Shown here in pieces: positions 11,638 through 44,149 of a stretch of 64,000 bases of DNA. The translations under genes were made by a program, and so were the position numbers. How positions within the stretch are numbered: position 1 is the first letter of the stretch; each line of letters opens with the position of its first letter. The notes beneath the pieces were generated by a model. It did no database searches. It was given only the letters and a program-made list of their open reading frames with translations, and had not been told where the DNA came from. Where the stretch lies: positions 1,674,001 to 1,738,000 of the forward strand of contig BQMF02000014.1 of the NCBI GenBank assembly GCA_027922465.2, read 5' to 3'. This DNA is from Turritopsis dohrnii (taxonomy: Eukaryota > Cnidaria > Hydrozoa > Anthoathecata > Oceaniidae).

Positions 11638-12099
11638 TTAAAATTTAGTTTTGCTGAAAATACTTTTCCCAGTCTCGTCCGTTTCAGTTCTGGCTTTCAA
11701 GTTGGATAACGTATTCCAAATCTGTCCAATCACCTCGCAGTCACCGTCACACTCCCATTGGACTTTGCTTCGCGACAAAATTTCCATGAGGCGTTTCTGT
11801 TTGCTGAGTTTATCCGACTTTTTTTCGGCAACCAATTTGTCCCATTCAATTTTATCTTGGTCATTTGAAACTATCAATTCCGAACGCTTTACTAAATCTG
11901 AAAATTTTTTGATCAGTTTGGCAAGTTCAGCTTTCCTTTTTGCATCGGTGTTTTTGCTATCGATTTCTTTCGAGAAGCTTTCGTTTAAGCTCTTCAATCG
12001 TTTCGATAATGCAGTCCAGTCGTCGGCCACGGGTTTCCCATCACATGCCCAACACAGAGCAAGTAAAATAATAACAAATGCTACCACACTTTTATACAT
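11638..12099 (-). CDS. Small secreted protein, WxCDxxC family, member 1 (153 aa)
   Basis: I do not recognise this family. I chose the ATG at 12099 because it begins a good signal peptide (MYKSVVAFVIILLALCWACD, then GKP); a longer frame to 12162 adds 21 residues before it. The mature part is Lys/Glu-rich and predicted helical, with WTALSKRLK near the start. KQKRLMEIL then leads into the core VQWECDGDCEVIGQIW, which has the only two mature cysteines (CX3C). The tail ends SIFSKTKF. This is the most divergent member (Gly-Asp inside the loop, IW in place of LR). The gene appears intronless, with a TATA-like element about 130 bases upstream. Function unknown; a secreted peptide or precursor is possible. 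Confidence 0.72.
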   Translation of the reverse strand: MYKSVVAFVIILLALCWACDGKPVADDWTALSKRLKSLNESFSKEIDSKNTDAKRKAELAKLIKKFSDLVKRSELIVSNDQDKIEWDKLVAEKKSDKLSKQKRLMEILSRSKVQWECDGDCEVIGQIWNTLSNLKARTETDETGKSIFSKTKF

Positions 12100-12230
12100 C
12101 TTCGAGCACAAATAATCTTTTACGTATGTGACTGCACTTTTTTTTGATAATACTTTTCCCAACTATTTGACCAATCAGTGATCTGCTTGTTTGATGTCAG
12201 TCCAAACTTGAATGATACCACAACCTCGCA

Positions 12231-12245
12231 GCACATTTATATAGC
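12231..12245 (-). promoter_or_regulatory. TATA-like element upstream of member 1
   Basis: On the minus strand the bases read GCTATATAAATGTG, about 135 bases before the ATG at 12099. This position fits a transcript with a leader of roughly 100 bases. Confidence 0.45.
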
Positions 12246-12259
12246 AATACGATTTTCAG

Positions 12260-14092
12260 GGAAATTTCCTTTTTTTCGGTAATTTTTCCGTATGAATCTT
12301 TAAAAAATAAATAGATAAAACAACTATCAAAACCCAAGAAAAACCCTAATTTTTGTCTTTCACTACAATAAGACATCAACTTCAGTACCAGACCCTTTAA
12401 CGTCTTAATCATTCTGATCTCCATTACATAGTAGCCTTTGTTGCGCCTCGCTGTTTCTTTTGTACATTTGCTGTACCATCAATAGCCATGCTGGATACAT
12501 GGCTGTAAATAAGATCAAAGTAAGAGCTGCTTTGTGAGTGGTTTTATTGTTCATGTTTTACAAACCGAATCAATTCAAAAAATTATTCAAATCCGGTTTT
12601 TTTCCGCATTTAATGCGAGGGAACTGGGAACTAACATGTCTAGTTATCATGCTTTGGATTTTAATTTTCTGGAATATCTATAGAAATTGCTGCGCAAATT
12701 TTCCGCTCAGACTTATTTCTGTATGATAAGGAACAACAACGAAATGTGTTTGCTTTGTCAGCTATTTTCCTCAGCCATTTCTTTGTTACAGGCTTTGGTA
12801 AACATCCGTTTCATGGTGCTTTGGGTTAACACAAAAAAGTTACACCACATAGAGTTAGAAAAAAATAAAAATTTATTTTGGGATATATAAGTTGAAAAAA
12901 AGGGTAGAGATCTGCGTTTACTATAAACGAATTCTGAAAGGAATTTTAAAATAATTTTTGAAGGAAAATACTAAAATTGTTTTTGTTTTTTTTGTAAGGG
13001 GAAAATGACGAGTGTATCCAAGTCCAATGTGTTTAGACCGCCAAGTGTTTTGATTATGCGAGTAAAAAACAAGCATGATGTATGGAAACGTAAGATTTTA
13101 GTATGAAAACAACCAGGAATAGAATTTGTCTCGTCTTATGTTTGATGTTCTCTTATTTTCGAGGCAATATACAATAACTGTCTCATTTAACCAAAACAGA
13201 AAGTCTTCTTAAACCAAACTATTAGGGCTGCGTCTTCTTACACACGCGTTATGGTGGTTGTCAGTTATTTCGAATGTTAACTCATATTCTGTTGTATTTC
13301 GGACAGTGATCAATATTTTAGACAAAAGGATTTAATTAAGTATCTACTGCAACGGTTAGGCTGGAGATTTGCAATGACAATAATACCAGGCTATTTAGAA
13401 TTACTTTCTTTGATATGGAATATCGAGGAATAACTCGATTAACCCCATTTTAAATTTCATTTTGAAGACATCACTTTGAATCAAATACTGTCCACTGCAA
13501 ACTTCAAATCCATTCCGTGACCCTGAATCTTTCATACTTCCGATTACAAAAGAAGATTACAAAACTATTCGTTAATTAGGGTGAGTGAGGTCAATGTATG
13601 AGATTTGACAAACTATCACTTATATCAATATACAGTTCTCAGGCACTGCATGTATCAACTTGTATGTATCCACATAAAACTGATCCAAGCTACGAAAGAA
13701 GAAAACCTTCCGCCATATTTTCTTTTGTGTGTTACTGTTTACAGCAACGGCAACCGACGTCGAATCATGTATATTTTCAAAATTCAATAGCTCAAATACT
13801 GCCTGAATAATTTATTATCTGAAAGAATTTTTTTTGGAAAATTCATTTAAGCGAGGTTCCAAGAAGTTTAGATTTCATTACCAAGTTTATAACACAAGAT
13901 GTTATGAATAGTTTTTGATTGGATACCCAACTTCGTGCCGAGGTTGTTTCTCTCTTTAGGATATGAAGTATGGTCGTCTATAAGACCAAAAGCGACAAAA
14001 CAGCCCTGGGTACGATTTCGAAGAAATAAGCCTTGCTTTAAAATTTTGACAATCAGCAATCCATACTTGGTTCAGCGATAAGATGATCGTAA
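12260..14092. other. Intergenic, nothing recognised
   Basis: 1.8 kb of AT-rich sequence with scattered frames of 60-75 codons that show no domain, signal peptide or codon pattern suggesting a gene. No complete repeat was found. Confidence 0.4.
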
Positions 14093-41900: not shown

Positions 41901-42894
41901 ACAATCCTTTTTCAAGACAACCTTTTCGGATCGCTATTACTTATCAGCAGTACTGCATCAAGAGCATTTATGTTCGATCCATATACCATCTTGTTTTCAT
42001 GTAAAACCCCGTTAGCAACTGTTATTAGTCTCTGTTTGTTTATTAACGTAAAAAAGAAGTGTCCCGCTCGATCTGAAAATTCAAAGACACATTCTTTCAT
42101 GCATGGTTCCTACTGTGTGATGACGTCTCGTCATTTTCTTTTTGATCTTACAATTTCAATTCCCTTAGAGCATTGTAGATTTCATATACGACCAGGTCTA
42201 AAAAACTTTCAGGGATGACTTTCTGGTTTTGTGGTCAAAACGATAGCACGATTGTGGAAGCAAAGCATAAAGGTTATACTGGACGGTATATCCCGCTCAG
42301 AATGCTGTTTATGTTTATGACCTCTAATAAAGTCAATATTAGTAAAGGTATTAAGGAACTTCATAAAAACAAAGGTTATGTAGCTACAACTATGCTCATC
42401 TACGAATTCTGACCAACTGAGTTTTATGGTTTAAGCCTTGTTAAATTGGTTTGGATCAGTGAGGGTAAGTCTCAGAATATATCGTTATCTTTCAGACAAT
42501 TTTATAAGGATTTTAACCAAGAAGTCTAACTGGATAGAAACTAGATGTATACCTGTGATTTTCTTGATACGATCATCAGGTTTAACCAGTGGGGGAATAA
42601 CAGACAACATATGGTTTTACGTTAACATTTTTTAAGTATTTCTTATATATAATTTCGCTAAAAATATTTCCCTCATAAATACGTTTACAAATTAATTTAG
42701 TCAAAGTTTAGGCATTTCTTCTTTTGAGCGTCATTTTCTTAATTATCAGAATTGTCAGAATTTTTTCTGTTTACCAAAAGTCTTTTCAGTAGAAGATTGT
42801 TGCTTTTTTTCATAAGAAAACCTGATGAAGTTCTATTAATGCAAATTTTTGTGTTTTCAAATTCAGCAACCAGACAGTCCGGGTCCGGTCGTAC
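38952..42894. other. Intergenic, 3.9 kb, no gene recognised
   Basis: AT-rich. A Ala/Cys/Lys-rich 67-codon minus-strand frame at 39347-39550 has no recognised domain. About 42424-42470 is a copy of the dispersed repeat in intron 6 of the chitin-binding gene (TTGTTAAATTGGTTTGGATC). Nothing else is supported. Confidence 0.4.
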
Positions 42895-42896
42895 TA

Positions 42897-43046
42897 CAGT
42901 CAACTCCCCATATCTCGAATACTCGATATCTCGAACATTTGTGTTTCCTTCCATTAGACACTATGGACTTGTTTGGGCCCAAATCCTCTTGATATCTCGA
43001 ATTTTCCTCCCTGTCGCTGAGAGTTCCAGACATCGAGAGTCAACTA
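42897..43046. mobile_element. Pogo/Tigger-like MITE, 150 bp
   Basis: CAGTCAACTCCCCATATCTC left; right end reversed TAGTTGACTCTCGATGTC; TA on both sides (42895-42896, 43047-43048). ATATCTCGAA motifs recur inside. TA duplication and CAGT-type ends fit the Tc1/mariner-pogo superfamily. Confidence 0.6.
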
Positions 43047-43837
43047 TAGTTCATATTTCACCTTAAATTGGCAGCAATCGATATACCTTTCATTACTCTA
43101 TCAACAGTTTGACTAAATGACCAGTACAAATAATAAGGTCATACTATGAGAAAGGATAATGAGGTCAAACTAGATGAAATTTTCTTGGTAATGTCACCTT
43201 TGTTATTCCGTGATTGAGAAAAAATATTTATTTTTTCATATATCACTGATATCACTTTTCCTCGTCTCGTTCTTTTGAGCGCGAAAATGAACTCAAAAGA
43301 AAAGGGCTTCTCATCCGCTAAATTAAAGTAATCAATGTTTGTTTGGACTCATCAAAAACTCGCACCAGCATGTCGAAATTACGTTTTGTTTGTGAGGAAT
43401 AGCGAAATAGTCCGTCAGAGCGTTCATAACACAAGATTGAAAATATTAAAAAAAAAGAAAAAAGTAAATGTATGAAATACGTGTCTTTGGTGGCATCACG
43501 TGACAATATTTATTATGTGTTATGAAACTGATTGCGTTTGCTCAGGGATTTACCCATCAATGTCCAATTTTGATCTTGGTAATGGCCAGATTCACTTATA
43601 CATTCCCATTAATTGTTTTGTTTTCAGCCATACGGCAGACGAGAAATTTATGTGCGGAAGTTAAATTAAATCACATTGCGCATCATATATTTGAAATCCG
43701 AAATGTATCGTTTAACCAACCTGCATTTTTGCTTTTATGTAGCGTATGGATCACGTGACCAGGGAACTCTCATTGTTTTTGGTTTTTTCCCCGTTCCCTC
43801 TCTCCTTCTCTGATGTTTTTGACTCTTTTCAGCCATC

Positions 43838-44149
43838 TTATTTTGTATAGTCTTGTTGTTTATAAATATCGTCAAATGATATCGTCAACAATGGAGATTG
43901 CGTAGAACTTTTCCGATGGGATAATCCACTTCGTAATTTTGCTTGCTCCTGGCACTTCGCATCACATTTCCATTTAATTGTCTTCTTGATTTCTTCTTCT
44001 GTTTTTTCCATCACTTTGTTAAAGACTTTAAGAAACTTGGGAACGTCAAGTGACGGATTTTTTGTTGGTCGAGCAGCTACAGAATTCTTCCAGCAACTTA
44101 GGACGCAGAAAATCACAATTAAGATCGGTAAAAATTTATTGCCATCCAT
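43838..44149 (-). CDS. Small secreted protein, WxCDxxC family, member 5 (103 aa)
   Basis: Unrecognised family; the shortest and most distant member, 17 kb from member 4. I chose the ATG at 44149 (MDGNKFLPILIVIFCVLSCW, a good signal peptide); a 12-residue longer frame starts at 44185. After the signal comes NSVAARPTKNPSLDVPKFLK, then VMEKTEEEIKKT and the core IKWKCDAKCQEQAKLRSGL. Its CX3C pair matches the others, although the loop has Lys-x-Asp-Ala and QLIGQ is QEQAK. The tail SPLLTISFDDIYK resembles SPLIIDLFAEHK of member 3. The long Lys/Glu middle of the others is missing. A TATA-like run lies near 44300, and a GTT/GCT microsatellite lies 48 bases upstream of the ATG. Confidence 0.66.
   Translation of the reverse strand: MDGNKFLPILIVIFCVLSCWKNSVAARPTKNPSLDVPKFLKVFNKVMEKTEEEIKKTIKWKCDAKCQEQAKLRSGLSHRKSSTQSPLLTISFDDIYKQQDYTK

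What the first reader, a model, noticed from the sequence alone, without database searches (positions are those of the whole stretch)
11638..44149. Same-strand cluster of five small secreted proteins sharing an undescribed W-x-C-[DN]-x-x-C-[QE] core
Five intronless minus-strand genes (11638-12099, 18058-18513, 22889-23443, 26394-26942, 43838-44149) each have a signal peptide and one conserved block near the C-terminus. The block is a basic Arg-Leu helix lead-in, then [ILV]-[KQ]-W-x-C-[DN]-x-x-C-[QE]. The two cysteines of the CX3C loop appear to be the only mature ones. In four of the five, the residues before the core fit K-[QE]-[KE]-R-L. The core is fixed while linkers and tails vary in sequence and length, as expected for a secreted ligand, antimicrobial or venom-like family. 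I know no family with this signature; function is open.
Basis: partly seen in the sequence, partly recalled or inferred. Interest (0 to 1): 0.88.

Follow-up and report, generated by a model that had tools for sequence, protein, structure and literature searches.

The report
Five clustered secreted proteins, unknown family
An animal-type genome carries a local cluster of five related one-piece genes for small, probably secreted proteins that share a short two-cysteine core and match no family in the libraries searched; their role is unknown, but they could be precursors of a secreted signal or effector.

Summary
Five complete minus-strand ORFs lie at the stated coordinates, each with W-x-C-[DN]-x-x-C-[QE] near the C-terminus and no other cysteine outside the signal region. 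P1-P4 are clear paralogues. P5 (43838-44149) shares only some 23 residues, but this beats shuffling. Excess of silent changes in the core shows protein-level constraint in 7 of 10 pairs. No sixth copy appears in 264 kb, nor genome-wide with P1, P3 and P5 as queries; copies as distant as P5 would be missed. Corrections: P2's signal peptide is weak; the conserved module spans about 40 residues; in P3/P4 the linker is constrained and the tail is not. Nothing above cut-off in Pfam or NCBIfam, no relative in the PDB or 5.8 billion proteins; no metazoan proteome set was available, so "undescribed" is likely, not shown. Both AlphaFold models are too poor to use. Most likely: secreted precursors whose C-terminal ring-plus-helix module is a ligand, perhaps released at K-x-x-R.

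The parts
11638..12099 (-). P1, 153-aa long-form member; core W115-E-C-D-G-D-C121
   Evidence: TATATAAA 144 bases before the ATG
18058..18513 (-). P2, 151-aa member; core W106-H-C-N-R-N-C112; N-terminal part unlike the others, weak signal peptide
   Evidence: AATAAA 12 bases after the stop
22889..23443 (-). P3, 184-aa long-form member; core W124-D-C-D-R-K-C130
   Evidence: TATATAAA at -107 and AATAAA 11 bases after the stop
26394..26942 (-). P4, 182-aa long-form member, 73% identical to P3; core W122-D-C-D-R-E-C128
   Evidence: TATATATA at -107
43838..44149 (-). P5, 103-aa minimal member: signal peptide, short linker, core W60-K-C-D-A-K-C66, tail
22886..23611 (-). Copy 1 of the P3/P4 duplicated block (733 alignment columns, 81% identical): coding region, 5' leader and proximal promoter with the TATA box
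   Evidence: alignment
26391..27110 (-). Copy 2 of the same duplicated block (P4)
   Evidence: alignment
22997..23119 (-). Conserved 41-residue module of P3; equivalents at 26502-26624 (P4), 11680-11802 (P1), 18121-18243 (P2), 43895-44017 (P5)

Best explanation
A small local paralogous family of single-exon genes encodes secreted, probably helical proteins whose shared active unit is a C-terminal module of about 40 residues: a basic lead-in (K-x-x-R-L in four of five), a short helix, [ILV]-[KQ]-W, a five-residue ring closed by one disulfide (C-[DN]-x-x-C), then an amphipathic helix. Most likely it works as a secreted ligand: the signal peptide directs export, a convertase may cut after K-x-x-R (K-K in P5), and the ring at the foot of the helix presents the binding surface. 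Shown: five homologous open frames, signal-like N-termini in four, protein-level constraint on the module, no copy found outside the cluster by the searches that ran. Inferred: disulfide within the chain, cleavage, helix, ligand role.
For: The module is present in all five, while the rest can be missing: P5 has only some 40 residues between signal region and core. Synonymous exceed nonsynonymous changes in the 32-codon core at p below 0.002 in 7 of 10 pairs; weaker in P1-P5 (0.03), P2-P5 (0.16) and the near-identical P3-P4 (0.31) (in 4 pairs the silent count exceeded the silent sites and the empty cell was set to zero). K-x-x-R lies at -15 to -12 from W in 4 of 5, K-K at -5 in P5; that [KR]-x-x-R is a convertase motif is recalled. 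Signal-region hydropathy 2.29-3.58 in 4 of 5. TATA-like boxes at -107, -107 and -144 in P3, P4 and P1 (P3 and P4 are not independent). The P3/P4 duplicated block ends 3 bases beyond the stop codon.
Against: The proteins are K/R-rich, with 2 to 8 basic sites each by the same rule, and P2, P3 and P4 also have a basic pair at -5 or -4, so the site may be plain helix. No conserved amidation signal. The P3/P4 linker is constrained like a folded domain (dN/dS 0.11-0.13), not like a throw-away propeptide. P5's post-core segment has almost no helical moment (0.02). Both models have mean pLDDT near 52. Upstream regions of all five share no clear promoter (10 invariant of 458 columns). No expression data.
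Confidence: 0.35

Rival explanations
1. The whole unprocessed protein is the product: a secreted helical protein acting outside the cell as a defence or venom-type effector, the CX3C element stapling the start of the last helix.
For: P1, P3 and P4 are alike over the N-terminal part too (P1-P4 28% over 157 residues); that part is under purifying selection in P3/P4; pI from residue 23 on is 8.7-10.2 in 4 of 5; local same-strand duplicates; near-neutral tail in P3/P4.
Against: P3 has pI 6.4; only two cysteines; the core is constrained, not diversified; P5 lacks the N-terminal part.
Confidence: 0.27
2. Covalent dimer: the CX3C of one chain pairs with that of another, giving an inter-chain helical hairpin; the product may be structural (matrix, mucus, egg) rather than a signal.
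For: The cysteines and the following Ile/Leu recur in steps of 3-4 residues (C, C, I, L, L), one face of a helix if it is a helix; chitin-binding genes lie beside the cluster.
Against: Both weak models break the helix at the first cysteine and resume it between the two; neighbourhood in such a genome is poor evidence of a shared role.
Confidence: 0.2
3. A family already known in animals that the available libraries do not hold.
For: A chitin-binding ORF from the same window found only 8 relatives in the protein database, so animal coverage looks thin. A relative as distant as P5 is from P3 (30 bits) would not reach E 1 in 5.8 billion sequences (my estimate).
Against: No Pfam model above cut-off; six spellings of the motif occur in none of the 5.39 million open-licence papers held (main text only).
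Confidence: 0.15
4. Chance ORFs or decayed genes with no product.
For: No transcript evidence; P2 has a weak signal peptide; AATAAA/ATTAAA is absent within 600 bases of the stop in P1 and lies at 512 and 324 in P4 and P5.
Against: Silent-site excess, five intact frames, shuffles.
Confidence: 0.03

Closest known systems
Calcitonin/CGRP-type peptides (closest analogue in design)
   Same: Two cysteines forming a small ring, followed by an amphipathic helix, in a secreted precursor with basic cleavage sites (passages of PMC6002491).
   Different: CX3C here against CX5C in the two starfish peptides printed in those passages (CX4C of CGRP is recalled); no conserved amidation site; no Pfam match. Not a member.
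Twin-CX3C folds (alpha-hairpinins, small Tim proteins; recalled)
   Same: C-x3-C, helical context.
   Different: Only one CX3C per chain here.
Octocoral intronless cysteine-rich peptides of the acrorhagin-1 helical-hairpin type (PMC11896702: passages, part 1 of 2 of section 20)
   Same: Intronless paralogous genes, secreted, helical peptides held by disulfides.
   Different: Three or four disulfides in 36-48 residues there; at most one in about 80-160 residues here. The phylum of this genome was not established.
CX3C chemokine (recalled; a likeness of name only)
   Same: The letters CX3C.
   Different: Four cysteines and a beta-sheet core there; two cysteines and predicted helix here.

Membership tests
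Calcitonin/CGRP-type peptide | Cysteine pair with wider spacing (CX5C in the passages seen; CX4C in CGRP recalled) | tested here: not met
   CX3C in all five; CX5C in ArCT and PpCT as printed in PMC6002491
Calcitonin/CGRP-type peptide | C-terminal amidation signal, usually after Pro | tested here: not met
   Tails printed: G-K in P1 and G-R in P2 at unmatched places, none in P3, P4, P5
Calcitonin/CGRP-type peptide | Match to the family profile | tested here: not met
   No calcitonin family in the Pfam listing up to E 1 (HMMER's filters drop most matches above about 0.1)
Calcitonin/CGRP-type peptide | Amphipathic helix after the ring | tested here: inconclusive
   Helical moment 0.38-0.45 in 4 of 5, 0.02 in P5; models of low confidence
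Secreted peptide precursor (general) | Signal peptide | tested here: inconclusive
   Hydropathy supports 4 of 5; P2 weak; no predictor held
Secreted peptide precursor (general) | Convertase site flanking a conserved core | tested here: inconclusive
   K-x-x-R ending 12 residues before W in 4 of 5, K-K in P5, but many basic sites in all; cleavage itself not testable here
Twin-CX3C folds | Two CX3C motifs per chain | tested here: not met
   Cysteine positions
Cysteine-rich animal toxins (ShK, SCRiP, acrorhagin type) | Six or more cysteines in the mature peptide | tested here: not met
   Two mature cysteines in each
CX3C chemokine | Four cysteines, chemokine domain | tested here: not met
   Two mature cysteines; no such family in the Pfam listing

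The most novel reading that the evidence does not exclude
A lineage-restricted peptide-signal family of new design: a five-residue disulfide ring, preceded by an invariant tryptophan, at the foot of an amphipathic helix, freed from a helical precursor at K-x-x-R, with cluster paralogues kept alike in the core by gene conversion while their tails diverge.
Probability: 0.22. Interest if true: 0.7.

Novelty: new variant of a known kind. Interest (0 to 1): 0.42.

Why it matters
If expressed, the module is small and easily synthesised and has a defined motif, so its target could be sought directly. The cluster also offers one locus in which core-restricted gene conversion and tail divergence can be studied in a secreted family. 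As it stands it is one of many unexplained secreted families of animals, with better support than a single orphan because five paralogues share a constrained core.

Tried and rejected
Further copies: none in the window by motif or tblastn. In 264 kb the motif with a leading hydrophobic residue matched 9 times: the five genes and 4 places in open stretches of 10, 13, 30 and 40 residues. Genome-wide, P3 as query gave 5 matches: P3, P4, P1, P2 and one at E 0.85 on another contig, taken as chance. P1 gave P1-P4. P5 gave itself alone. Since P3 does not find P5 nor the reverse, equally distant copies would be missed. The P2 query and the degenerate core pattern did not complete.

Relatives elsewhere: protein database with the alignment of five (4295 candidates, none at E 1) and with residues 98-148 of P3 (1 candidate, none at E 10); viral contigs (with the alignment, 59 with P2, 60 with P3) and bacterial and archaeal genomes (P3): none confirmed. 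Pfam at E 1 listed 4 families for P1, 2 for P2, 0 for P3, 1 for P4, 1 for P5, all below their cut-offs; the strongest, VEGFR1-3_N_Ig-like on P1 (E 0.001, 19.5 bits, cut-off 35.4), was rejected for that reason. NCBIfam: two for P3 and one for P5, all far below cut-off. PDB: geminin, a bitiscetin chain and CBX5 at E 0.08, 1.1 and 9.7 for the full profile; nine residues of a CEACAM5 chain at E 1 for the core; taken as chance. No tRNA and no Rfam family in the window.

Structure: two AlphaFold runs, mean pLDDT 52.0 and 52.6; no fold search was made on them. Promoters: an alignment of the upstream regions of all five shows no shared element beyond the P3/P4 likeness. Papers: nine searches; only looked for motif strings (none found). 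The rest gave listings, of which I looked into two papers by passages or part of a section. Segment-wise dN/dS rests on few silent sites (14 to 25 per segment) and on boundaries chosen after seeing the alignment; the first 22 residues gave 1.6 on 1 silent and 5 other changes. One search stopped on an error in the Fisher test and was replaced. I ran no control for TATA-like words.
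Full report
WHAT IS THERE. I call them P1 (11638-12099, 153 aa), P2 (18058-18513, 151 aa), P3 (22889-23443, 184 aa), P4 (26394-26942, 182 aa) and P5 (43838-44149, 103 aa). W.C...C occurs 7 times in the six frames of the window; 5 are these and 2 lie in open stretches of 16 and 23 residues. Of 11 ATG ORFs of at least 100 aa in the window, 5 carry the motif, against 0 of 92 in 40 first-order Markov simulations. Outside the first 20 residues each protein has two cysteines only, those of the core.

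HOMOLOGY. Best tblastn E values within the window are 3e-15 for P1-P4 over 157 residues, 6e-12 for P2-P4, and 4e-4 for P5-P3 over 23 residues. With 2000 shuffles per pair, none reached the observed score in 8 of 10 pairs; P1-P5 had 3 and P2-P5 had 1. So P1-P4 are certain paralogues and P5 very probably is one. P1, P3 and P4 also share the N-terminal part; P2 does not clearly, and P5 lacks it.

SELECTION. In the 32-codon core, silent differences exceed the others: pS 0.65-1.18 and pN 0.28-0.50 for the 9 pairs other than P3-P4, p below 0.002 in 7 of all 10 pairs. In four pairs the counted silent changes exceed the silent sites, and the empty cell was set to zero for the test. For P3-P4, 182 codons give dN 0.164, dS 0.488, ratio 0.34. 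By segment the ratio is 1.6 (residues 1-22, six changes), 0.13 (23-60), 0.11 (61-100), 0.20 (101-145) and 0.87 (146-184). Codons 99-143 hold 4 of the 103 differences in 135 of 549 sites (hypergeometric 1e-9, a region chosen after seeing the data), and the longest identical run, 51 bases, is reached in 13 of 10000 permutations. Silent sites there are nearly unchanged (dS 0.09) against dS 0.80 and 1.25 in the linker; the signal region is also low (0.07). As silent sites of the same core are saturated between P1 or P2 and the others, local gene conversion between P3 and P4 explains this better than constraint on the DNA (inference).

GENE ANATOMY. P3 and P4 share a block of 733 alignment columns at 81% identity, from 3 bases beyond the stop codon to 168 bases upstream of the ATG, with a TATA-like box at -107 in both. 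P1 has TATATAAA at -144 and P2 TATATATA at -60; P5 has only TATATA words at -161 and -255. AATAAA follows the stop by 11 and 12 bases in P3 and P2; P1 has neither AATAAA nor ATTAAA within 600 bases, and P4 and P5 have one only at 512 and 324. Such words are common in DNA that is two thirds A+T, and no control was run. Signal-region hydropathy is strong in P1, P3, P4, P5 and weak in P2, which might have an unseen upstream exon.

EXTENT. The window is C14:1674001-1738000 of an unnamed 436-Mb genome in 891 contigs. With 100 kb on each side added, no sixth copy appears. Genome-wide, the P3 query finds P1-P4 and one hit at E 0.85, P1 finds P1-P4, P5 only itself. P3 does not find P5, so equally distant copies would be missed. 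The P2 query and the pattern search did not complete.

NEIGHBOURS. Of 286 stop-to-stop frames of at least 55 aa in the window I tested 136: the 150 longest less the five family frames, seven that overlap them, and two others. Nine match the chitin-binding domain CBM_14 and no other family is listed at E 0.001. The call does not say which nine; those I recognise by eye lie on the plus strand between 1299 and 6262. Of 346 flanking frames of at least 72 aa I tested 57: four match CBM_14, others Helitron, reverse transcriptase, MFS and THUMP domains. I take it as an animal genome from this; the phylum was not established.

RELATIVES. Nothing above cut-off in Pfam or NCBIfam, no credible PDB match, none in 5.8 billion proteins, viral contigs or bacterial and archaeal genomes. 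The protein database does hold some such sequence: a CBM_14 ORF of the window found 8 relatives among 122 candidates. It is not a metazoan proteome set, so absence there does not prove an undescribed family. Six spellings of the motif occur in none of the 5.39 million papers held.

STRUCTURE. Two AlphaFold runs on alignments of five sequences gave mean pLDDT 52.0 and 52.6. Both draw helices that break before the first cysteine and resume between the two, but at this confidence that is a hint only.

READING. The one part that no member lacks is the C-terminal module, so I take it as the active unit. A K-x-x-R at a fixed distance before it in four members, and K-K in P5, would suit release by a convertase. 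A two-cysteine ring leading into an amphipathic helix is the design of calcitonin-type peptides as described in passages of PMC6002491. Ring size, amidation signal and profile match all fail, so it may work like one and is not one. Against the peptide reading, the P3/P4 linker is constrained like a folded domain, and basic sites are many in these proteins. A whole-protein effector and a disulfide-linked dimer are therefore serious rivals. I give the ligand reading 0.35.

Noticed in passing
1278-8036, +: Exons of one or more chitin-binding (CBM_14) genes (extent judged by eye), with internal duplications: 6536-6779 and 7764-8009 are 95% identical, 6006-6280 and 7176-7448 85%.
   Followed up: partly
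5563-5867 and 24492-24796: A 305-base element in two copies on opposite strands, 96% identical, with a tRNA-like box B stretch: looks like a SINE (the SINE reading is from recall).
   Followed up: no
near 8040, 9646, 15335, 15710, 21500, 37281, 37559, 51316, 57634: At least nine copies, on both strands, of a repeat of about 110 bases, mostly 80-87% identical in pairs.
   Followed up: no
31513-31570, 33727-33771, 34761-34809, 51965-52011: Short tandem arrays of a 17-base unit (CTCTCTAATAAGCGCCC and near forms) scattered through the window.
   Followed up: no
19094-19388 and 35404-35698: A 295-base direct repeat, 96% identical; no Pfam family was listed for window frames other than CBM_14.
   Followed up: no
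56688-56852 and 62859-63017: Two long near-palindromes (82% and 79%), like foldback elements.
   Followed up: no
L019:2-6175: A frame of 2058 residues, running off the fetched stretch, with Helitron and PIF1 helicase domains, about 30 kb beyond the window.
   Followed up: no
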